Assembly: GCF_002835665.1 (NCBI RefSeq) | Contig: NZ_PIZV01000056.1 | Location: 1-64,000 of the forward strand | Source: Chryseobacterium sp. PMSZPI | Lineage (GTDB): Bacteria > Bacteroidota > Bacteroidia > Flavobacteriales > Weeksellaceae | Length of the DNA: 64,000 nucleotides | Reading direction: 5' to 3' | Part shown: one piece after another, positions 2,561 through 31,155 of the stretch | How positions within the stretch are numbered: the stretch's first letter is position 1 | How the letters are laid out: each line of letters begins with the position of its first letter | Program-made: the position numbers and the translations under genes | The notes under the pieces: generated by a model | Databases searched by the model: none | Seen by the model: only the letters and a program-made list of their open reading frames with translations | Told to the model about the DNA's origin: nothing

Positions 2561-3064
2561 ATGAAACTGGAAACCGAAAGATTAATTTTAAAAGAAATCA
2601 ACGAAAGTCATGTGGAAGATATTCTGCGGATCAGAAGTAATGAAGTAACGAATCAATATGTGAAAAGGAATTCTCCGAAAACCAATTATGATTCATTGAA
2701 TTTTATTTTACATATTAAAAAAGAAGTTCAAAACAGAGAAATTGCTTTTTGGGGTATCTCTTTTAAAGATCGGCAAAATTTGATCGGCACCATTTGCCTG
2801 TGGAATTTTTCAGAAGATAAAAAGACTGCAGAAGTAGGATATGAACTATTGCCTGATTACCATAGAAAGGGAATTATGGGTGAAGCACTGACTGCTGTTT
2901 TAGAGTATGGATTTAATACCTTAAATTTACACAAAATTTTAGCATTTACCCACAAACTTAATGAAGCTTCTCAGGCTTTGCTTTTACAACATCAATTTGT
3001 TTTAGAGGAAAACATAAAAGATGAGAAGAATCTTGAAAATGCTATTTTTAGTTTAAAAAAATGA
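2561..3064 (+). CDS. GNAT N-acetyltransferase, RimJ/RimL-like
   Basis: A 167-aa acetyl-CoA-dependent acetyltransferase of the RimJ/RimL (Acetyltransf_3) type. It opens with the typical LETERLILKEIN strand. It carries the acetyl-CoA loop around YHRKGIMGEAL and ends with the NLHKILAFTHKLNEAS segment common to this family. Such enzymes acetylate protein N-termini or small amines, and the substrate cannot be told from sequence. It stands alone between mutS2 (divergent) and ung (60 nt downstream, same strand). A TAnnTTTG box ends 4 nt before the ATG. It lies 6 kb from the graspetide genes, so it is not assigned to them. Confidence 0.9.
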   Translation: MKLETERLILKEINESHVEDILRIRSNEVTNQYVKRNSPKTNYDSLNFILHIKKEVQNREIAFWGISFKDRQNLIGTICLWNFSEDKKTAEVGYELLPDYHRKGIMGEALTAVLEYGFNTLNLHKILAFTHKLNEASQALLLQHQFVLEENIKDEKNLENAIFSLKK

Positions 3065-7676: not shown

Positions 7677-8456
7677 ATGGAAATTTTAAACTCAAAAATA
7701 TTCGGTGAAAATTTAACAACAACACCACTTTTAGTATTTCACGGATTGTTTGGAATGCTTGATAACTGGGGAAGTTTCGGAAAAGATCTGGGAGAATATC
7801 TTCCGGTACATTTAATTGATCTTCGAAACCACGGACGAAGCTTTCACTCTGAAAGTATGTCTCATGATGATCTGGCCGATGATATCGCCCATTATATGGA
7901 TCATTACGGAATTCAAAAAGCTCATGTTCTAGGACATTCTTTGGGTGGAAAAGCCGTGATGCAGTTTGCTATAAAATACCCTGAGAGGGTAGAAAAATTA
8001 ATCGTTGTAGACATTTCACCAAAAGCTTATCCTCCACATCACCAAGGGGTCATTAAAGCATTGGAAAGTGTTGATTTTAATATTGTGGGTTCAAGAAATG
8101 AGGTAGAAGCTGTTCTGAATCAATATATCCCGGAAAGATCTACGGTTCAATTTTTAACCAAAAATTTATATTGGGATGATAATAAGAAACTTAATTGGAG
8201 ATTTAATCTTAAAACATTATCCGAAAAATATAATGAATTTGTTTCGAATGCAATAAAGTTCGGAGTCTTTGAAGGAGAAACTTTATTTATTGCCGGAGAT
8301 AGATCTAATTATATTTTACCACAAGATGAATATGGAATTAAGCAGCAATTCCCACATGCGAAAATTATTACAGTAAAAAATGCCGGACATTGGGTGCAAG
8401 CCGAAAACCCTGTTGATTTTGCAAGTGTTGTTAAGAATTTTCTTGATTTAAATTAA
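7677..8456 (+). CDS. Alpha/beta-fold hydrolase (YbfF-like esterase)
   Basis: A 259-aa serine hydrolase. The oxyanion-hole HG lies in VFHGLFGMLDNWG, the nucleophile elbow GHSLGG has Ser at about 88, and the catalytic His is in GHWVQAENP at about 238. The DLRNHGRS segment is typical of YbfF-type acyl esterases. An ATG at 7677 fits the family N-terminus (MEILNSKIFGE); the frame also opens at a TTG at 7647, but those ten extra residues have no family support. Substrate unknown. The graspetide precursors begin 115 nt downstream, but a hairpin at 8461-8478 separates them. Confidence 0.88.
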   Translation: MEILNSKIFGENLTTTPLLVFHGLFGMLDNWGSFGKDLGEYLPVHLIDLRNHGRSFHSESMSHDDLADDIAHYMDHYGIQKAHVLGHSLGGKAVMQFAIKYPERVEKLIVVDISPKAYPPHHQGVIKALESVDFNIVGSRNEVEAVLNQYIPERSTVQFLTKNLYWDDNKKLNWRFNLKTLSEKYNEFVSNAIKFGVFEGETLFIAGDRSNYILPQDEYGIKQQFPHAKIITVKNAGHWVQAENPVDFASVVKNFLDLN

Positions 8457-8478: not shown

Positions 8479-8570
8479 TGATGTTAAAATTTTATTAAAA
8501 ATTAATATTATTTCTCTATAAGTTGAAATTTTTGTACTTTGGATTGTCAAAAAAATAAAATTATTAACTT

Positions 8571-8786
8571 ATGGAAAACAAAAATTCAAAAAAGAAACCG
8601 TTTTTCGCAACATTTTTAGAAAAACAACTTAAAGACCCTGAAACAGTGAAAGGGGGAAGTGTTACTTCATTATTGTTAGATGATGTAACTACAGCTCTTA
8701 AAGATGGGGTTACCAAGCCGGATAATGATAATGTGACCATGAAATACCCATCCGATGGGGACGATGATGTTTTAGAAGTTCAATAA
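8571..8786 (+). CDS. Graspetide (microviridin-type) precursor peptide 1
   Basis: A 71-aa RiPP precursor. Residues 10-17 (PFFATFLE) match the PFFA-x-FLE leader helix that ATP-grasp graspetide ligases bind. K27-G28-G29 forms a leader end. T56-x-K58-Y-P-S61-D62-G-D-D-D66 matches the microviridin core TxKYPSDxEE, with Asp in place of the usual Glu pair. Residues 31-55 repeat with an exact 8-residue period: Val at 31, 39, 47, 55; Thr at 32, 40, 48, 56; Asp at 37, 45, 53. A short tail (VLEVQ) follows. An 18-nt gap leads to a paralogous precursor. Product class is well supported; the final ring pattern is not known. Confidence 0.93.
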   Translation: MENKNSKKKPFFATFLEKQLKDPETVKGGSVTSLLLDDVTTALKDGVTKPDNDNVTMKYPSDGDDDVLEVQ

Positions 8787-8804
8787 AACGTAAAAAAGGT
8801 CATT

Positions 8805-9023
8805 ATGGAAAATAAGAACTCTAAAAAGAAACCTTTTTTTGCCTCTTTCTTAGAAAAGCAAATTAAAGATACTGAAACTATAAAAGGAGGAACAGACATC
8901 TCAATTCCTGAAAGAGATGTCGTTACAAAACCGGATTACGATATCGTAACGACTCCACAGGATGATATGATGCACACTTTGAAATATCCTTCTGATGGTG
9001 ACGATGATGTTCAATATGTATAA
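8805..9023 (+). CDS. Graspetide (microviridin-type) precursor peptide 2
   Basis: A 72-aa paralogue of the preceding precursor. The first 29 residues are nearly identical, including PFFASFLE at 10-17 and K27-G28-G29, and the core T58-x-K60-Y-P-S63-D64-G-D-D-D68 is conserved. The linker has diverged but keeps the 8-residue register: Ile/Val at 32, 40, 48; Ser/Thr at 33, 41, 49; Asp at 38, 46, 54. The tail is VQYV. It probably arose by tandem duplication and makes a second, slightly different product with the same ligases. A strong hairpin follows before the ligase genes. Confidence 0.93.
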   Translation: MENKNSKKKPFFASFLEKQIKDTETIKGGTDISIPERDVVTKPDYDIVTTPQDDMMHTLKYPSDGDDDVQYV

Positions 9024-9051
9024 AATAAACAATTAAGTACATAACAAGATC

Positions 9052-9083
9052 AAAGGGAAACTTACTATTTAAGTTTCCCTTTT
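9052..9083 (+). terminator. Intra-operon terminator/attenuator hairpin
   Basis: A perfect 13-bp stem (9052-9064 with 9070-9082), a 5-nt loop and a short T-run lie between precursor 2 and the first ligase gene. It probably lets most transcripts end after the precursors, giving excess substrate over enzyme. Confidence 0.75.
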
Positions 9084-9099
9084 CAATAAAAACCGGCTA

Positions 9100-10056
9100 A
9101 TGATTCTCTGCATCACCCATTCCCAGGATTATTATAATATCGATATTTTTTTCGAATACCTTACCTCTCAAGAAATCCCTTATTTCAGATTAAATTCTGA
9201 TCGTTTGAATCATTTCCAGAAGATCAGTATCCATGAAGATTCTTTTGAATTGACTGATGAATATGGAAATACAATTCATTCTGATCAAATTAAAGGGATA
9301 TGGCATAGAAAAGCCTGGAAAATAAATGTACCTGAAGAACTGGATGATGACTATGAGAGAATATTTCTGAAAGAATACAGAAGTCTTCGATATAATTTAT
9401 TGACCATCTTGGAGCATTTGCCATGGATCAATCCTTATGAGAATGAAAAAAAGATCGACGGGAATAAAATGCTTCAGCTCAAAATAGCACAGAGAAATCA
9501 TTTGACTACTCCTAAGACCATTTTTTCCAACGATGGAGAGCAGGTAACTTCTTTTTTTCATCAGTACTGTAAAGGAAAAGCTATTGCCAAACTTCATGGT
9601 GTAACGACAAAGACAATGAGTGGTGAAAACTTGGTGGCCACTACAATAATCGAAGAAGGCACATTGGAACATCTTTCGGATATCGTGTATTGTCCTATGA
9701 TTTTTCAGCCTTATATTGATAAAGAATATGAGCTAAGAATTGTCTATGTAGATGGTGAATTCTTTACCGGAAAGATCAATAATAATGAAAATTCCGATTG
9801 GAGAATTGCCAGAGAAGGCTATTTCTGGGAAGCTTACGAGTTACCTGGCCTTATCAAAGTAAATCTGACTTCTATGATGAAAGAAATGGGGCTTTATATA
9901 GGAGCCATCGATATCATGAAAGGAATGGATGGACAATATTATTTCCTTGAAGTCAATCCACAGGGAGAATGGGGAATGTTACAGAAAGAATTAGGATTTC
10001 CCATAGCAGAAAGAATTGCCGACAACCTTATCAAAAGAATTAATTTCCATGAATAA
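9100..10056 (+). CDS. mvdC: ATP-grasp graspetide ligase, MvdC/MdnB-like
   Basis: A 318-aa ATP-grasp peptide macrocyclase. It has an N-terminal pre-ATP-grasp fold (MILCITHSQDYYNID), the IWHRKAW segment, the central YELRIVYVDGEFFTGKI strand, and the metal/ATP-binding IGAIDIMK...YYFLEVNPQGEW near the C-terminus. In microviridin pathways two such ligases act in turn; the GEWGML-type ending resembles the MvdC/MdnB branch, which closes the Lys-carboxylate amide. The start ATG is 17 nt after the hairpin. The next ligase gene overlaps it by 8 nt, so the two enzymes are translationally coupled. The branch assignment is from remembered motifs and less certain than the family. Confidence 0.85.
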   Translation: MILCITHSQDYYNIDIFFEYLTSQEIPYFRLNSDRLNHFQKISIHEDSFELTDEYGNTIHSDQIKGIWHRKAWKINVPEELDDDYERIFLKEYRSLRYNLLTILEHLPWINPYENEKKIDGNKMLQLKIAQRNHLTTPKTIFSNDGEQVTSFFHQYCKGKAIAKLHGVTTKTMSGENLVATTIIEEGTLEHLSDIVYCPMIFQPYIDKEYELRIVYVDGEFFTGKINNNENSDWRIAREGYFWEAYELPGLIKVNLTSMMKEMGLYIGAIDIMKGMDGQYYFLEVNPQGEWGMLQKELGFPIAERIADNLIKRINFHE

Positions 10057-11053
10057 AATTTTAATTATAACCCATACCGCAGATAATTTTTCGATTGAAA
10101 AAGTAACAGAATATATTGAACAAAATAATTGTGAAGTCATTCGCTTTGATGTTGATTTATATCCTTTACAAAACAACTTGTCAACTGTTTTCCAGAATGG
10201 AGAATGGGTGAGTATTCTTGAAACTCCAAATACTAAATACCGTTTGGATGATATTTCATCAATTTGGTACAGACGTGCCTACAACATTGGAAAAGGATTG
10301 AAAGATGAAATGGATTCAAAATTTTACGGGGCAGCCATGGGAGAGATCCGTAATACCCTTTTTGGCTTTTTTGAATCGGTGGATGCTTATTCATTAGGCA
10401 AACCTAGTATTTATAGGAGACTTGACAGTAAGGAAGAGCAATTAAAAATCGCTGATAAATTAGGCTTGACCATTCCGGCAACCTGTATCACTAATAATCC
10501 TGAAGAAGCGAAAAAATTTATTGTGAAACATCAAAATGTCGTTGCTAAAATGCAAACCGGCTTTGCTATTTATGAAGACGGCGTGGAAAATGTGGTTTTT
10601 ACAAACGTTGTTAGTGAAGATAAGTTAGAAGAACTGGATTCACTTTTATATTGTCCAATGCAGTTCCAGCAAATGATTCAAAAGAAAAAAGAACTCCGTA
10701 TTACCATTGTAGGGAGAGATGTTTACGCTTTTGAAATCGATTCCCAGCAGTCTGAGGACGCAAAAATTGACTGGAGAAAAGACGGTATTAATCTGATCAA
10801 TAAATGGAACAGAACAGAATTGCCAAGTCATATTGAAGAAAAATTGTTAGAACTTTTGGATGTCTATCACGTAGATTATGGTGCGATAGACATGATTGTT
10901 TCTCCTGAAGATGAATATTATTTCATCGAGATCAATGCAGCAGGAGAATTCTTTTGGTTGGATAATCTTACAGAAGGAAATCTTATTTCTAAAAGTATTG
11001 CAGATGTTCTTTGTGATAAGGCATCAAGAAGAAACAATATGGTGATGGCTTAA
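10049..11053 (+). CDS. mvdD: ATP-grasp graspetide ligase, MvdD/MdnC-like
   Basis: A 334-aa ATP-grasp enzyme. From memory it resembles MdnC/MvdD: MNKILIITHTADNFSIEKV start, IWYRRAYN, LYCPMQFQQMI, ELRITIVGRDVYAFEI, DWRKDG, and YGAIDMIVSP...YFIEINAAGEFFWLD. MdnC-type ligases bind the PFFA-x-FLE leader helix and form the Thr-Asp and Ser-acid side-chain esters. The ATG at 10049 is preferred: a further ATG at 10016 lies deep inside the previous gene and would add eleven unrelated residues. A rho-independent terminator follows, so no dedicated transporter, protease or acetyltransferase belongs to this operon. Confidence 0.88.
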   Translation: MNKILIITHTADNFSIEKVTEYIEQNNCEVIRFDVDLYPLQNNLSTVFQNGEWVSILETPNTKYRLDDISSIWYRRAYNIGKGLKDEMDSKFYGAAMGEIRNTLFGFFESVDAYSLGKPSIYRRLDSKEEQLKIADKLGLTIPATCITNNPEEAKKFIVKHQNVVAKMQTGFAIYEDGVENVVFTNVVSEDKLEELDSLLYCPMQFQQMIQKKKELRITIVGRDVYAFEIDSQQSEDAKIDWRKDGINLINKWNRTELPSHIEEKLLELLDVYHVDYGAIDMIVSPEDEYYFIEINAAGEFFWLDNLTEGNLISKSIADVLCDKASRRNNMVMA

Positions 11054-11072
11054 AAATAAAATTAATATCGTG

Positions 11073-11107
11073 AAAGTCCTGAAAGTTTAATTTCTTTCAG
11101 GACTTTT
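11073..11107 (+). terminator. Terminator of the graspetide operon
   Basis: AAAGTCCTGAAAG pairs with CTTTCAGGACTTT around an 8-nt loop, followed by a T/A-rich tail. It lies 20 nt after the second ligase stop codon and marks the end of the operon. Confidence 0.85.
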
Positions 11108-11109
11108 AT

Positions 11110-11635: not shown

Positions 11636-12649
11636 ATGGTTTTTGTAACGGGTGCAACCGGAATCCTGGGGAGGATCATTGTGTTGGAACTTCTTAAGAG
11701 AGGTAAAGACGTACGAGCTTCCAAAAGACCGGGCAGCAATTTAAACGAAGTAAGGCATTCATACAGTTTTTATACGGAAAATCCTGATGATTTTTTTAAT
11801 AAAATTGAATGGGTGGATGTCAATTTTGATGATCAAAACTCTCTGGATAATGCCTTAAGAGGAATTGATGAGGTTTATCACTGTGCCGCAAAAGTAAGTT
11901 TTCATCCTAAAGATGAGAAAGAAATGTACCAGACCAATATCAAAGGTACAGAAAGTCTTTTGTTTGCCTGTGAAGGATCGGGAGTTAAAAAATTTCTGCA
12001 TGTAAGTTCTGTAGCCGTTCTGGATAACTTTAACGAAAAAGGAGAATTGGACGAAGATTCTGATTTTAATCCTAAATTGGAACATTCTGCATATGCAATT
12101 TCTAAACATTTGTCTGAAATGGAAGCCTGGAGAGCCTCTGCGGAAGGATTAAATGTGGCGATTATCAATCCGGGAATGATTGTAGGAAGCGGAAATTGGA
12201 ATCAAAGCAGTGGAGAACTTTTTTCTACTTTTGAAGACAATAGCTTTACATTTGCTGGCGGTTCTACTTACGTAGATGTCAGAGATGTTGCCAAAATTGC
12301 CATAGAACTTTTGGAGCAGAATATTTTTGGGGAGCGTTTTATCATTGTTTCCGAAAATAAAAGATATGCAGAACTTGGAAAACAGATCAGAACGAGACTG
12401 GGATTGAAGGATGCAAAAATTCTTACATCGTCTCAATTGAATATTGGAAGAATAGCCAATACACTCTTTGGGTGGTTGATTCCAAAATTAAGAATGATTA
12501 CCAAATCGAATATTGAAGCAATATCTACCTTCAACACCATTTCCAATCACAAAATCCAAAATAAACTGAATTATCGGTTTATTCCTGTAAAAGAAAGTAT
12601 CGACTTTCACCTGAATAATTATATTAACGACAAAAAGCTGAAGAAATGA
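11636..12649 (+). CDS. NAD(P)-dependent epimerase/dehydratase (extended SDR)
   Basis: A 337-aa extended short-chain dehydrogenase. The N-terminal Rossmann motif TGATGILG binds NAD(P). The adenine-side VDVNFDD and CAAKVSFHP strands, the catalytic YxxxK in YAISKHLSE, and an INPGMIVGSG substrate loop are visible. It resembles dihydroflavonol-reductase/3-beta-HSD-like SDRs; the substrate cannot be deduced. Its stop overlaps the start of the acyl-CoA ligase gene by 4 nt (ATGA), so the pair is translationally coupled and probably acts on related acyl or sterol-like substrates. Confidence 0.9.
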   Translation: MVFVTGATGILGRIIVLELLKRGKDVRASKRPGSNLNEVRHSYSFYTENPDDFFNKIEWVDVNFDDQNSLDNALRGIDEVYHCAAKVSFHPKDEKEMYQTNIKGTESLLFACEGSGVKKFLHVSSVAVLDNFNEKGELDEDSDFNPKLEHSAYAISKHLSEMEAWRASAEGLNVAIINPGMIVGSGNWNQSSGELFSTFEDNSFTFAGGSTYVDVRDVAKIAIELLEQNIFGERFIIVSENKRYAELGKQIRTRLGLKDAKILTSSQLNIGRIANTLFGWLIPKLRMITKSNIEAISTFNTISNHKIQNKLNYRFIPVKESIDFHLNNYINDKKLKK

Positions 12650-26424: not shown

Positions 26425-26556
26425 GAGGCTGTCTAAAAAGTGTCATTCTGAACGAAATGAAGTGGAGTGAAGAATCTCAAATGAATGATAATCAATGAGA
26501 TTTTTCCTACGTCAGAATGACAAAAGCCAAAATTATTTGACTTTTTAGACAACCTC
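26425..26556. mobile_element. MITE-like inverted-repeat element, 132 bp
   Basis: The left end GAGGCTGTCTAAAAAGT and right end ACTTTTTAGACAACCTC are inverted with one mismatch. Inside them GTCATTCTGA and TCAGAATGAC, then GAATCTCA and TGAGATT, form nested arms, so the whole element folds as one hairpin. GAGGCTGTCTnAAAA-type ends resemble transposon ends as I recall them in Bacteroidota. No clear target duplication and no second full copy in the window. Confidence 0.6.
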
Positions 26557-26874
26557 CAATGTTTATAATAGAAAAGGAGTATGAGGAAAATAAAGAAGCG
26601 TAGAGAAAATTTATTTTGATGATTTTAGATCAACCACGGATTACACAGATTTTCACAGATGTTTACGGATATGCAACGTTTACTTTTTTGTATGGAATGT
26701 CTGCTGTTGTTTTCATTCACTAGCGCTCATCATTCATCAATTATCAATGATTATTCATTACTCATTACTCATCATCCTAGCCTCGATAGTAGCGGTTACC
26801 CCGCAGCATGTCTTGGTGTTAGCTTTGGAGCGAGGAGTATGAGCGGATAGCGAGAATAGCTTCTTAAAGAAAAT

Positions 26875-26906
26875 AAAAGACTTTCCAAAATATTGAAAAG
26901 TCTTTT
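26875..26906 (-). terminator. Terminator of ahcY
   Basis: AAAAGACTTT pairs with AAAGTCTTTT around a 12-nt loop, 22 nt after the ahcY stop on the minus strand. Confidence 0.75.
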
Positions 26907-26927
26907 GTATTATAAAGATTAAAAATC

Positions 26928-28241
26928 TTAGTATCTGTAGTACTCAGGTTTGAATGGTCCTTTTACATCTACTCCAATGTACTCAGCTTGTTCAGGAGAA
27001 AGAGTTTCTAGCTCTACGCTTAATTTCTTAAGGTGTAAAGCAGCTACTTTTTCATCTAAGTGCTTAGGAAGCATGTATACTTCGTTTTTATAAGCAGCAG
27101 AGTTGTTCCATAATTCGATCTGAGCCAAAGTCTGGTTAGAGAAAGAGTTAGACATTACGAAACTTGGGTGTCCTGTTGCACATCCTAAGTTTACCAATCT
27201 TCCTTCTGCAAGGATGATTACTTCTTTTCCTTCTACGTTGTAGATGTCTACTTGTGGCTTCACTTCAGATTTAGTGTGACCGTAGTTTTGGTTTAACCAA
27301 GCCATATCGATTTCATTATCGAAGTGTCCGATGTTACAAACGATCGCTTTATCTTTCATTTTAAGGAAGTGCTCTCCTCTTACGATGTTAAAGTTACCGG
27401 TTGTAGTAATGATGATATCTGCGTTATCTACTACAGTATCCAATCTTTTTACTTCATAACCGTCCATAGCAGCCTGAAGGGCACAGATCGGGTCGATTTC
27501 TGTAACCGTAACAATAGATCCTGCTCCTCTGAAAGATGCAGCAGTACCTTTACCTACGTCTCCGTATCCGCAAACTACCACTCTTTTTCCTGCTAACATT
27601 ACGTCTGTAGCTCTTCTTACAGCATCTACTGCAGATTCTTTACATCCGTATTTGTTATCAAACTTAGATTTAGTTACTGAATCGTTTACGTTGATTGCAG
27701 GCATTACTAAAGTTCCATTCTTCATTCTTTCGTACAATCTGTGTACTCCTGTCGTTGTTTCTTCAGAAAGACCTTTAATATCTTTAGTGAATTGAGGGTA
27801 TCTGTCAAAAACCATGTTTGTCAAATCACCACCATCATCTAAGATCATGTTTAATGGTTTTCTGTCTTCTCCGAAGAATAAAGTCTGCTCAATACACCAG
27901 TCAAATTCTTCTTCATTTAGACCTTTCCAAGCGTAAACCGGAATTCCTGCAGCAGCGATAGCAGCAGCAGCGTGATCCTGAGTAGAGAAAATATTACAAG
28001 AAGACCAAGTAACTTCAGCTCCTAAAGCGACTAATGTCTCGATAAGTACCGCTGTTTGGATTGTCATGTGAAGACATCCCGCAATTCTTGCTCCTTTAAG
28101 GGGTTGAGACGGTCCGTATTCTTCACGGATAGCCATTAGACCGGGCATTTCAGCCTCTGCAAGAGTAATTTCTTTTCTTCCCCATTCTGCTAGGGAGATA
28201 TCCTTAACTTTATAAGGAAGGTATTGAGTTGTTGATTCCAT
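26928..28241 (-). CDS. ahcY: Adenosylhomocysteinase
   Basis: A 437-aa NAD-dependent enzyme that splits S-adenosylhomocysteine into adenosine and homocysteine, relieving product inhibition of methyltransferases. Characteristic blocks are [51 protein letters not shown], the NAD-binding [16 protein letters not shown], and the C-terminal [22 protein letters not shown]...PFKPEYYRY, with the Lys-Tyr pair that caps NAD. Complete and typical. A textbook promoter precedes it. Confidence 0.98.
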
Positions 28242-28260
28242 CTATCTGAAAAATTTTTCG

Positions 28261-28292
28261 CAAATTTACAAACTAAAATCCTGCTGACCAAA
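28261..28292 (-). promoter_or_regulatory. Promoter of ahcY
   Basis: On the minus strand, TTTG (28292-28289), N20, TAAATTTG (28268-28261), ending 19 nt before the ahcY start. It matches the Bacteroidota consensus exactly and nearly abuts the divergent phosphopantetheinyl transferase start at 28296. Confidence 0.8.
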
Positions 28293-28295
28293 AAT

Positions 28296-28910
28296 ATGCC
28301 CCTTTACCGAGATTTTTCAGATGACAATGCCACAATCCTTGTTTGGAAGTATGATGAGAGCGACGAACTTGATATCAATGAGCTTCTTGAGCCGGAAAAT
28401 GCCGAAAAAGTAAAGGATTACCATCCTAAGAAGCTATTGGAGGTATTGATGGTGCGTAAACTTTTGAAGGGTTTAAAGCCCAATTCTAAGATTTTATACA
28501 AAGAAAGGGAACCTTTTCTTTCTCCCAAAGATGCGGAAATTTCCATTACTCATTCTTTTCCTTTTGCTGCAATTGCTATTTCCAGGAATAAAATTGGGAT
28601 TGATGTAGAAAAGTTTAACGCTAAAATTATGAGGGTAATTGATAAATTCACGTATGAAAATGAGCGTGGATTTATTCCTGAGGATAAGGCTGATACTTTT
28701 TATACCATTATCTGGAGTGTAAAGGAGAGTATGTACAAGATTCACCACTCAAAATACTGGTCTTTGAAAAAAAATTATGAAGTAAAGCCTTTTGAGTTGA
28801 AGCATCTTCATAAAATAAGCTGCAGAGTTTATGATGATCAGTTTTCGGATGAATTTAAAGCGAGAGTTGAATTTTTTGACGACTACTGTTTTACGATTGT
28901 GGAGGAGTAG
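28296..28910 (+). CDS. 4'-phosphopantetheinyl transferase superfamily protein
   Basis: A 204-aa protein of the Sfp/AcpT type that moves phosphopantetheine from CoA to carrier proteins. The Mg-binding motif IGIDVE and the WSVKESMYK motif (consensus W-x-x-KEA-x-x-K) are present, with ISITHSFPFAAIAIS providing the CoA-contact His. It could modify the fatty-acid ACP or a secondary-metabolite carrier; no synthase lies nearby. It is divergent from ahcY. Its last 20 nt overlap the 3' end of the FUSC gene on the other strand. Confidence 0.88.
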   Translation: MPLYRDFSDDNATILVWKYDESDELDINELLEPENAEKVKDYHPKKLLEVLMVRKLLKGLKPNSKILYKEREPFLSPKDAEISITHSFPFAAIAISRNKIGIDVEKFNAKIMRVIDKFTYENERGFIPEDKADTFYTIIWSVKESMYKIHHSKYWSLKKNYEVKPFELKHLHKISCRVYDDQFSDEFKARVEFFDDYCFTIVEE

Positions 28911-31155
28911 CGTGTTTCTCATTTCTATATTTTTCAATCACTTTTCGTTGTTCTTTGGCAACATCATAGATCAGTTCGAGGATATCCAGGATATTTTTAA
29001 GTTCTGTTAAATGTGAAATCTTATCCGGATCCCTTCTGTCGACGATATCATTTTCCTCGATCTCTGTTTTTCTTTTCATGAGCATATCTTCAATGAAAGA
29101 ATCTTCTGGTTCCAGGCGGCTTTCCATTTTAAGGGTTTCGCTGATGTCCTCTCCATTTAATAACGTTGAGGTTTGCTGCATTTCTGCTTCAATTTTTCTG
29201 CTCCAGTTTTCTGCATCTACTTCAGGGTATTGTTCATTGCTTTTAGAGTATTGAGAAAGAGAAGCTGTATAAGCTGTAATAAGATGTGAGGTGGCTACAA
29301 ACTGGTGGACAACTTCTAATTTTTTTTGCTGGTTTTTAGGATCCGAAATCATCCTTTGGAAATTATCCGAAAGATTGGCCAAAGAAATAATAGCATTCTT
29401 TCGCTTTACTTTATAATCTTCAATATCGAAATTTCCTTTTAAGAATTTAGAAATCACACTCTGAAAATAGATGAGGTTATCTTCAGCCGACTTTTTCATC
29501 AGATCCAGGTTCTGGGTATGCTCCCAAACCGGCAATACAATATAAGAAACAGCAAAAGCTATAATTCCGGCAATCGCTGTATCTAGAACTCTGTCTTTGA
29601 AAATAATATTTACTTTTCCCGGATTTAAGAAATTAAAACTAAGGAAAACATAGATGGTCATGAATAATACAGCCCAAAAATATCGTCCTTTCAAAAAGCT
29701 GAAGCACATGATCATACTGATCAGGAGAATGGCTAATAACACACTATTAATGTGTATGAAATGCAGGATGATATAAGCAATTGTAGCCCCGGTAACTGTT
29801 CCGTAAAGTCGAAGCAGGTTTCGTTGTTTGGTAATGGAGTATGCGGGTTTTAAGATCGCTGTAATGGTAATTAATATCCAATAGGTGTGGCCTAGTCCCA
29901 GAAAGTCAAACATAGAGAAAAGATATCCTAGCAATAAAGCAGTGGTAATCCTTATCGCATGGCGAAAGTGGGAGGAGGACAGTGATATATTATTTCTTAA
30001 AACTTTGGCATTAAGTTTAGGCTCATTGGGCATAAATTTTTTCAAGTCTAATCCGGTGGATAAACTTTTTGCCAGTTTTACGTTTTGAGAAAATACTTTA
30101 TAAATCTCATTGATCTCTTTGGTAATTTCATTGATGCGCATCAGAATTTGACGCAGGATCATGAAGTTTTCCAGATTATCAGAAGACAGTTGTTTATTTC
30201 TAAGTTCGAAATAATTGTAATTAAGATTCTTTAATTCAAGTTCCAGATTGAACATTGGTTTTGCTCTGGTTCCGCTTTGGAGGGCAATTCCGATATTGGT
30301 AATTTCTTCGGCTAAAAGGTTGAGGTAATCGTGGATGTTGACCAGAATCATGCTGTCCTCAAAACTCTGTTGTAGCTTTTGGTAATCACTTTCGGAAGTC
30401 ATCAGCTTCTCATGAAGGTCCATAGAATTCAGAAACATCAACATTAATAGACGACTGGTGGTCGTAGATTCATTGACAATCGTTCTGGTTTTAAAAACAG
30501 TCTCTCTGGTATCTTCCTGAAGATTTTTGATTTCTATTTGTTTCGCAATAACCTGCGTTGTAAGCTTATCGAAATCCGGGCTTTTTTGGTAATAGTTGGC
30601 TTTAATTTTTAAGAACTCTGCGAGTTGAAGATAATTTTCTCCAATCATTTGTCCTGCCAGTTTGTATGGACGGATAGTGGTTACTACAAGGAAGATAAGT
30701 AAAAACCATATACAACCGCTGGCGAAGATTAATAAACTTTTTAAAATATTGTTTCCTGTAAGGTGACCGTCAATAAAAATGGCAAGTACTACCAGGGATA
30801 ATGACCCTACAGCAGCCAATCTTTGGCCATAGACACCAATCAGCGAGAAGAACATTCCAAAAGCAACGATTTCAAGAAGAACTAATATTTTGAAGTTCAT
30901 TACCAGACTGGCAATGGTGGCGACAAAAACAAAACAGCAAATAGCAAAAGCAAGGGCGTTTCTTCTTCGAATGAAAGGTCCGGGTTGATCGGTAAGGGCT
31001 ACAAAACTGGTTCCAAGCGGGAAAAGGAAGTATTCCTTTAGAATTCCAAAGTGGGCAAGGACTAAACAAGGCAGAACGGTGGCTAATGTAATTCTGATGG
31101 CAGAATATACATATTGACTCGTTACAAATTTTTTTAGCTCCGCCGAATAGTTCAT
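28891..31155 (-). CDS. FUSC/YccS-family membrane protein
   Basis: A 754-aa inner-membrane protein. Two six-helix bundles (about residues 15-165 and 395-540) each precede a soluble helical domain, the arrangement of YccS/YhfK and the aromatic-acid exporter AaeB (FUSC superfamily). The second bundle starts SHFRHAIRITTALLLGYLF, the usual FUSC signature. It is predicted to export organic acids or toxic compounds; no substrate is known. A TATTTTTG box ends 4 nt before the ATG. Confidence 0.88.
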   Translation of the reverse strand: MNYSAELKKFVTSQYVYSAIRITLATVLPCLVLAHFGILKEYFLFPLGTSFVALTDQPGPFIRRRNALAFAICCFVFVATIASLVMNFKILVLLEIVAFGMFFSLIGVYGQRLAAVGSLSLVVLAIFIDGHLTGNNILKSLLIFASGCIWFLLIFLVVTTIRPYKLAGQMIGENYLQLAEFLKIKANYYQKSPDFDKLTTQVIAKQIEIKNLQEDTRETVFKTRTIVNESTTTSRLLMLMFLNSMDLHEKLMTSESDYQKLQQSFEDSMILVNIHDYLNLLAEEITNIGIALQSGTRAKPMFNLELELKNLNYNYFELRNKQLSSDNLENFMILRQILMRINEITKEINEIYKVFSQNVKLAKSLSTGLDLKKFMPNEPKLNAKVLRNNISLSSSHFRHAIRITTALLLGYLFSMFDFLGLGHTYWILITITAILKPAYSITKQRNLLRLYGTVTGATIAYIILHFIHINSVLLAILLISMIMCFSFLKGRYFWAVLFMTIYVFLSFNFLNPGKVNIIFKDRVLDTAIAGIIAFAVSYIVLPVWEHTQNLDLMKKSAEDNLIYFQSVISKFLKGNFDIEDYKVKRKNAIISLANLSDNFQRMISDPKNQQKKLEVVHQFVATSHLITAYTASLSQYSKSNEQYPEVDAENWSRKIEAEMQQTSTLLNGEDISETLKMESRLEPEDSFIEDMLMKRKTEIEENDIVDRRDPDKISHLTELKNILDILELIYDVAKEQRKVIEKYRNEKHATPPQS

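What the first reader, a model, noticed from the sequence alone, without database searches (positions are those of the whole stretch)
8571..11107. Compact two-precursor graspetide (microviridin-type) cluster
Seen: two tandem small genes with PFFA-x-FLE leaders and TxKYPSDGDDD cores, then two overlapping ATP-grasp ligase genes, closed by a terminator. Known: in microviridins one ligase makes two side-chain esters and the other an amide. Inference: this strain makes two related multicyclic peptides, possibly protease inhibitors. No dedicated transporter, leader peptidase or N-acetyltransferase is in the operon, so export and trimming must use outside enzymes. A graspetide called chryseoviridin has been described from this genus; I cannot tell how close this one is.
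Basis: partly seen in the sequence, partly recalled or inferred. Interest (0 to 1): 0.78.

Follow-up and report, generated by a model that had tools for sequence, protein, structure and literature searches.

The report
Chryseoviridin-type ring-peptide gene cluster
These four small genes encode two short proteins and two enzymes that should tie the proteins into chains of rings; clusters of this type were already described in Chryseobacterium, so this is a new member of a known kind.

Summary
In detail: two graspetide precursor genes (8571-8786, 8805-9023) and two overlapping ATP-grasp ligase genes (9100-10056, 10049-11053) end at a terminator-like hairpin. It is a chryseoviridin (cdn) locus: the second ligase matches solved CdnC (PDB 7mgv, E 2e-188) and is 82% identical to the C. 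gregarium product. PMC8939145 surveyed such loci and names the same flanking hydrolase and epimerase.

(1) The peptides are multicore: each has three T/S-x4-D single-ring modules before the TxKYPSDGDDD cage, so six predicted rings. In 153 distinct pre-cage segments T..D is enriched only at offset 5 (491 versus 96 in shuffles). (2) A hairpin 14-22 nt before cdnB is present in 73 of 73 loci; ligase expression probably needs read-through. (3) The cluster is an optional cassette: hydrolase and epimerase are adjacent in 19 of 19 testable genomes without cdnC. (4) Nine of those 19 keep the hairpin without the genes, with better-conserved sequence upstream and at the hairpin than in between.

Ring chemistry, export and leader removal are inferred. 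New member of a known kind; modest interest, the gene-free hairpin units being the open lead.

The parts
8482..8541 (+). Upstream element TGTTAAAATTTTATTAAA (8482-8499) plus TACTTTG box (8535-8541), presumed operon promoter
   Evidence: Element found by a strict pattern upstream of the first precursor in 64 of 73 loci; TA[CT]TTT[AG] within 60 nt upstream in 57 of 73. In this genome one exact match and five with one mismatch, reversed-pattern control 1. Promoter role inferred.
8571..8786 (+). Precursor 1 (71 aa): leader to ...VKGG; three single-ring modules TSLLLD, TTALKD, TKPDND; cage core TMKYPSDGDDD
   Evidence: six best-scoring relatives are all position-1 precursors of two-precursor loci
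8805..9023 (+). Precursor 2 (72 aa): leader to ...IKGG; modules SIPERD (Ser donor, weaker), TKPDYD, TTPQDD; cage core TLKYPSDGDDD
   Evidence: six best-scoring relatives are all cdnB-adjacent precursors
9052..9082 (+). Conserved hairpin (13 pairs) followed by TCAATA, 17 nt before the cdnB start; read here as a leaky terminator
   Evidence: stem of 11 or more pairs (G-T allowed) in 73 of 73 loci, 0 of 1440 shuffled spacers
9100..10056 (+). cdnB: ATP-grasp ligase of the MvdC/MdnB type, predicted lactam former
   Evidence: TIGR04185 403 bits, cut-off 425; AMdnB 7m4s E 9e-55; 5ig8 E 3e-47
10049..11053 (+). cdnC: ATP-grasp ligase of the MvdD/MdnC type, predicted lactone former
   Evidence: TIGR04184 490 bits, cut-off 475; CdnC 7mgv E 2e-188; 82% to C. 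gregarium
11070..11109 (+). Terminator-like hairpin closing the operon (16 pairs, 5 G-C)
   Evidence: a hairpin of 8 or more pairs downstream of cdnC in 57 of 73 loci, with differing sequences
7677..8456 (+). Flanking alpha/beta hydrolase: fixed neighbour, not part of the pathway by this evidence
11636..12649 (+). Flanking NAD-dependent epimerase/dehydratase-like gene: fixed neighbour

Best explanation
This is a chryseoviridin-type graspetide operon. One promoter drives two precursor genes; part of the transcripts probably end at the hairpin after precursor 2 and the rest read through into cdnB-cdnC, giving more substrate than enzyme. Each precursor binds the ligases through its PFFAxFLE leader. 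CdnC then makes Thr/Ser-to-Asp esters: three single rings in the T/S-x4-D modules, then the two esters of the cage (T1-D7, S6-D9). CdnB closes the Lys3-to-Asp10 lactam. After removal of the leader, probably behind the Gly-Gly, the product is a chain of single rings ending in a microviridin-like cage, exported by a transporter encoded elsewhere. Shown here: gene content, homology, modular core statistics, conserved hairpin, fixed site. Inferred: ring connectivity, read-through, order of reactions, cleavage site, export, protease inhibition.
For: Precursor families. CdnC match to 7mgv over residues 1-333 of 334; 82% identity to the C. gregarium locus L057. CdnB matches MdnB-type lactam ligases; roles of MdnB and MdnC as stated in PMC7823629 (passages). 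Core statistics: 174 precursors from 73 loci, window included; in all, Gly-Gly ends at residue 20 counted from the P of PFFA. In 153 distinct pre-cage segments T..D occurs 491 times at offset 5 (shuffle mean 95.6, sd 8.3); no other offset from 1 to 11 exceeds its shuffle maximum. Of 509 spacings between modules, or from the last module to the cage, 355 are 8 and 136 are 9. Double changes: all 171 cores with Lys3 have Asp/Glu10, the 3 with Arg3 have Ala/Ser10; all seven Arg3 precursors found in a pattern scan of 173 genomes have Ala10 (two of the seven repeat cores already among the three). Hairpin in 73 of 73 loci. Same locus and flanks in PMC8939145.
Against: No mass or structural data for this strain. 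CdnB falls just below the NCBIfam MvdC equivalog cut-off (403 versus 425 bits). The first module of precursor 2 has Ser rather than Thr. The window's hairpin has a weak T-tract (TTTTCAATA) and the consensus scan does not call it a plus-strand terminator. The same hairpin persists in genomes without the cluster, so its function need not concern the ligases. The leader has Val/Ile at -4 but Lys at -12 in 169 of 174, so the C39 signal recalled from other peptides is only partly met. The Arg3 precursors look related and may be one event.
Confidence: 0.9

Rival explanations
1. Ordinary microviridin-type products: only the TxKYPSDGDDD cage is cyclised (three rings), and the segment between Gly-Gly and the cage is an unmodified spacer.
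For: The NCBIfam model is called a tricyclic inhibitor family; P5, S6, D7 and D9 of the cage are invariant in 174 of 174, the upstream segment is not.
Against: T..D at offset 5 is 491 observed versus 96 expected, with an 8-9 residue period; a closely related ligase is described in the title of the JACS 2021 paper (title seen in a reference list) as installing single and bicyclic esters in a multicore product.
Confidence: 0.06
2. The hairpin before cdnB does not set the precursor-to-ligase ratio. It is a processing or stability element, or the terminator of the upstream pdxJ-hydrolase unit or of a short transcript of its own, and the ligase genes are simply transcribed through it or from a promoter inside precursor 2.
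For: The window's U-tract is short; no transcript data exist here; the hairpin persists, with 7-8 T behind it, between hydrolase and epimerase in 9 of 19 genomes that lack the cluster.
Against: Stem followed by 4 or more T in 70 of 73 cluster loci, the other three having CTTTTT; only 14-22 nt lie between stem and cdnB start, little room for a separate promoter; it sits behind the last precursor in 73 of 73 loci.
Confidence: 0.35
3. A silent or decaying cluster that makes no product in this strain.
For: Decay is seen elsewhere: a frameshifted cdnB-adjacent precursor in L019, a cdnC with an internal stop in G038, gene-free remnants.
Against: All four genes are open here, with upstream element and both hairpins present.
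Confidence: 0.07

Closest known systems
Chryseoviridin (cdn) system of Chryseobacterium gregarium, and the chryseoviridin loci surveyed in PMC8939145
   Same: CdnC 82% identical, precursors-cdnB-cdnC order, same flanking hydrolase and epimerase, multicore precursors with TxxxxD modules ending in TxKxPSDxD[DE].
   Different: Two precursors here, four in C. gregarium; precursor sequences differ (six best relatives of each 73-82% identical over the whole precursor).
Microviridins of cyanobacteria (mdn/mvd)
   Same: PFFAxFL leader motif, two paralogous ATP-grasp ligases (MdnC-like lactone, MdnB-like lactam), TxKYPSD cage.
   Different: Extra single-ring modules; Asp instead of Glu at the second ester and lactam acceptor positions (microviridin core recalled; Glu as lactam acceptor also); no mdnD acetyltransferase or mdnE transporter in the operon.
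Grasp-with-spasm systems (TIGR04192)
   Same: ATP-grasp peptide maturase, Gly-Gly-type precursor.
   Different: Both window ligases score far below its cut-off (113 and 126 versus 230 bits). A separate cluster of this appearance lies on contig C6 (the label is recalled, not scored).

Membership tests
Chryseoviridin (cdn) system | CdnC orthologue | tested here: met
   E 2e-188 to 7mgv over residues 1-333; 82% identity to the C. gregarium locus
Chryseoviridin (cdn) system | Two ATP-grasp genes cdnB-cdnC directly after the precursors | tested here: met
Chryseoviridin (cdn) system | Multicore precursor: TxxxxD single-ring modules before a TxKxPSDxD[DE] cage | tested here: met
   motif as given in PMC8939145. 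The published spacing TxxxxDxxxTxK fits precursor 2; precursor 1 has one residue fewer between D and T.
Chryseoviridin (cdn) system | Flanked by alpha/beta hydrolase and epimerase | tested here: met
Chryseoviridin (cdn) system | Product with single and bicyclic omega-ester rings | not testable with these tools
   needs mass spectrometry
Microviridin (mdn/mvd) pathway | PFFAxFL leader and TxKYPSD core | tested here: met
   NF033738 69.7 and 70.2 bits, cut-off 26
Microviridin (mdn/mvd) pathway | MvdD-family ligase | tested here: met
   TIGR04184 490.5 bits, cut-off 475
Microviridin (mdn/mvd) pathway | MvdC-family ligase at equivalog level | tested here: not met
   TIGR04185 403.2 bits, cut-off 425, full-length match; related but below NCBI's threshold
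Microviridin (mdn/mvd) pathway | GNAT acetyltransferase and ABC transporter in the cluster | tested here: not met
   none in the operon; a GNAT gene at 2561-3064 is about 5.5 kb away; no ABC transporter among the 20 neighbouring ORFs scanned
Gly-Gly leader peptides processed by C39 transporters | Gly-Gly with hydrophobic -4, acidic -8 and hydrophobic -12 (recalled consensus) | tested here: inconclusive
   V/I at -4 in 174 of 174, D/E at -8 in 166 of 174, but K at -12 in 169 of 174
Grasp-with-spasm | Ligase above TIGR04192 cut-off | tested here: not met
   113.2 and 125.7 bits, cut-off 230

The most novel reading that the evidence does not exclude
The promoter and hairpin that bracket the precursors form a functional unit of their own, for example a short regulatory RNA also released from the precursor mRNA as its 3' end. 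It outlives the peptide genes: in nine of 19 examined genomes without the cluster, in two sequence groups (four and five genomes), a hairpin of the same sequence at the same site persists. Sequence upstream of it and at the hairpin is better conserved than the interior and, in most comparisons, than fourfold sites of the gene next door.
Probability: 0.2. Interest if true: 0.6.

Novelty: new member of a known kind. Interest (0 to 1): 0.33.

Why it matters
It turns 'two tricyclic peptides' into a sharper prediction, two six-ring peptides with stated masses. The genus-wide comparison adds three testable points: a site-specific conserved hairpin between substrate and enzyme genes, natural precursors that lost both partners of the lactam together, and hairpin units that persist after the genes are gone. 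The cluster itself would not surprise a graspetide specialist.

Tried and rejected
Rejected: grasp-with-spasm membership. Hydrolase and epimerase as pathway genes, because the hydrolase is next to the epimerase in 19 of 19 testable genomes without cdnC (pdxJ also in view in 18 of the 19 pieces).

C39 co-occurrence as proof of the exporter, not convincing: C39 genes are in 145 of 148 genomes, and the 3 without (G057, G079, G099) lack a cdnC match (G099 inferred from its absence from the match list). All 120 cdnC genomes have one, but the family is near-universal and species are not independent. The two C39 transporters of this genome (contigs C75 and C68) showed no graspetide genes among the ORFs listed around them (by eye, not by family search).

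Led nowhere: Rfam (0 matches) and tRNA scan (0 genes) of the window; sigma-70 promoter scan, 27 found versus 21.6 in shuffles, and terminator scan, 4 versus 3.0; a two-sequence consensus fold of the gene-free unit (L088, L090), where outside the terminal hairpin only one of the predicted pairs had changes on both sides.

Literature: 'graspetide terminator precursor' listed 4 papers; in PMC13097080 'terminator' occurs once, as a species name in a reference; the other three were not opened. PMC8939145 has 0 'terminator', 0 'attenuat', 0 'promoter', and 'hairpin' once in a reference title. 'microviridin lactam arginine bicyclic' listed 4 papers; none was opened for that question. So I found no report of the hairpin or the Arg variant, after only these searches. 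The original chryseoviridin paper (PMC9353652) is not held; its content is recall, its title was seen. PMC13003496 and PMC12291112: passages only; PMC13039773: abstract and outline only.

Rows dropped: one of 175 ORFs was a chance PSD match (174 kept); the frameshifted precursor of L019 is not counted; L019 was left out of the hairpin shuffle test; 21 duplicate pre-cage segments were collapsed (174 to 153). Precursors were kept only if they had the PFFA-type leader, so that motif's conservation is built in; Gly-Gly and the cage were not required. The epimerase search was given 20 of the 28 genomes without a cdnC match. One of these (G021) holds precursors on a short contig, as does G124, so 120 of 148 is a lower bound. 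The segment borders were chosen by eye after seeing the alignment; the bins are fixed 50-column bins.

Full report
What is there. Window 8571-11053 holds four co-directional genes: two precursors of 71 and 72 aa, and two ATP-grasp ligases of 318 and 334 aa whose ORFs overlap by 8 nt. The same 8-nt overlap was measured in 56 of 73 loci; the others gave other values, not checked one by one. The precursors pass the NCBIfam microviridin/marinostatin model and Pfam Inhibitor_I10. The first ligase is of the MvdC/MdnB kind, full-length but below NCBI's equivalog cut-off (403 versus 425 bits). The second passes the MvdD model (490 versus 475).

Identity of the system. Against solved structures the second ligase matches CdnC (7mgv) at E 2e-188 over residues 1-333. 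A scan of one genome per species returned 72 further loci, all but one titled Chryseobacterium (one Weeksellaceae MAG), with identities of 75-93%; the scan reaches close relatives only. C. gregarium, source of chryseoviridin according to PMC8939145, is at 82%. PMC8939145 (section on evolution of the loci read in full; [quoted passage not shown] These are the neighbours here (7677-8456 and 11636-12649). The window is a member of that described system.

The precursors are multicore. I collected 174 precursors from 73 loci, the window included. In all, Gly-Gly ends at residue 20 from the P of PFFA, with Val or Ile at -4. All have P5, S6, D7 and D9 in the cage; T1 or S1 (165 and 9); K3 in 171; an acid at 10 in 171. 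Between Gly-Gly and the cage, 153 distinct segments contain T..D at offset 5 491 times against 95.6 (sd 8.3) in composition-preserving shuffles; no other offset from 1 to 11 exceeds its shuffle maximum. Spacings between modules, or from the last module to the cage, are 8 residues in 355 of 509 and 9 in 136. Precursor 1 reads VTSLLLDD-VTTALKDG-VTKPDNDN-VTMKYPSDGDDD: three single-ring modules then the cage. Precursor 2 has SIPERD, TKPDYD and TTPQDD, then the cage.

Natural test of the lactam pair. Three of the 174 cores (L053, L054, L055) have Arg instead of Lys3, and the same three have Ala or Ser instead of the acid at 10. A pattern scan of 173 genomes found seven with such an Arg core; all seven have Ala10, and the other precursors printed from those loci keep Lys. 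Two of the seven carry the same core peptides as L053 and L055, so the sets overlap; the pattern covers only some Ser codons and missed the L054 type. All Arg cores are the first precursor seen in their locus and look related, so this may be one event. It fits Lys3 and residue 10 being the lactam partners, and predicts natural lactam-free products.

The hairpin between substrates and enzymes. All 73 loci have a stem of at least 11 pairs (G-T allowed) with at least 3 G-C between the last precursor and cdnB, ending 14-22 nt before the cdnB start (median 18), followed by 4 or more T in 70 of 73; the other three have CTTTTT. None of 1440 shuffled spacers (72 loci, L019 left out) reached 11 pairs. 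Most of the stem is conserved in sequence (GGAAACTTA/TAAGTTTCC), with some G-C/A-T/G-T exchange in the outer pairs. A pattern for it matches 124 of 148 genomes, nearly always once per genome, so it is not a common terminator sequence; the reversed control matched once in all. With so little room before cdnB the ligases are probably made by read-through, so precursors would outnumber enzymes. This is inference: no transcript data, and in the window itself the T-tract is short.

Site and history. 120 of 148 genus genomes have cdnC at E 1e-60 or better; two more hold precursors. Matches to pdxJ and the hydrolase lie in all 72 related loci and to the epimerase in 68 of 72; two of the four without it end soon after cdnC. 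I gave 20 of the 28 genomes without a cdnC match to an epimerase search. In 19 the hydrolase is adjacent, with 120-476 bp between; the twentieth was cut off. The cluster is an optional cassette at a fixed site between housekeeping-type neighbours.

Gene-free hairpin units. Nine of those 19 sites keep the hairpin sequence without precursor motif or ligase; the other ten do not. In L088-L091 the strict upstream element is kept too, 132-139 nt separate the TTAG of a -7-like box from the hairpin, and no open stretch from a Met exceeds 28 codons or recurs in the four. In L092, L093, L094, L096 and L097 a similar TGTTAAA-TTAG stretch is seen by eye (ORFs not listed). L088-L091: identity 0.85-0.95 upstream, 0.89-0.96 at the hairpin, 0.60-0.77 in the middle, fourfold sites of the hydrolase 0.64-0.70 (borders chosen by eye). 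The five: fixed bins give 0.88-0.98 upstream (columns 51-100), 0.86-0.98 at the hairpin, 0.48-0.88 between, fourfold 0.63-0.85. Against a special role: the stretch before the epimerase is equally conserved (0.90-0.94; 0.78-1.0), as promoters are, and the hairpin could simply end the upstream pdxJ-hydrolase transcript. By the pattern, 14 of the 28 genomes without a cdnC match have the hairpin: these nine, G021 and G124 (which hold precursors), and G126, G132 and G140 (site not looked at).

Export and trimming. No ABC transporter or C39 peptidase is in the operon or among the 20 neighbouring ORFs scanned. The genome has two C39-peptidase ABC transporters on other contigs. C39 genes occur in 145 of 148 genomes; the three without lack cdnC. 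That is compatible with C39 export but weak, since the family is nearly universal here and the leader meets the recalled C39 consensus only in part. PMC8939145 also leaves the protease open.

Assignment of chemistry. PMC7823629 (passages) states that MdnC/MvdD makes both esters and MdnB/MvdC then the amide. By homology CdnC makes the esters, including the single rings, and CdnB the amide. The title of the 2021 JACS paper, seen in a reference list, says the ligase installs 'single and bicyclic' esters in a multicore product; its details are recall. Protease inhibition is inferred from the class: PMC8939145 says all characterised graspetides so far are protease inhibitors.

Verdict. Observation confirmed, interpretation partly supported. 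New member of a known and already surveyed kind. Added value: the six-ring prediction, the site-specific hairpin, the lactam double changes and the gene-free units.

Noticed in passing
L088-L094, L096, L097 (genomes G055, G080, G092, G028, G059, G061, G001, G074, G018), between hydrolase and epimerase: Genomes without the cluster keep its hairpin, and a similar upstream stretch, around a poorly conserved interior of some 110-140 nt. Possible small RNA, scar of a lost operon, or plain terminator of the upstream genes.
   Followed up: partly
L053, L054, L055 and L081-L087, first precursor seen in each locus: Cage motif with Arg in place of the lactam Lys, always together with Ala or Ser in place of the acid at position 10: natural lactam-free variants.
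   Followed up: partly
G000 contig C6 about 26471-30205 (L003): Separate one-ligase peptide cluster of grasp-with-spasm appearance: 300-aa ATP-grasp, 357-aa cysteine-rich partner, 97-aa Gly-Gly precursor-like ORF.
   Followed up: no
window 8482-8499: TGTTAAAATTTTATTAAA, a near-palindromic AT-rich element upstream of the first precursor in 64 of 73 loci by a strict pattern, occurs exactly only once in this assembly; possible operator.
   Followed up: partly
L019, cdnB-adjacent precursor; G038:C1:1041974-1042792: Broken members: a frameshifted precursor in L019 and a cdnC with an internal stop in G038 (could be sequencing errors).
   Followed up: no
L061 upstream of its first counted precursor: The sequence before the first intact precursor looks like the remains of another precursor (leader-like stretch ending in Gly-Gly).
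   Followed up: no
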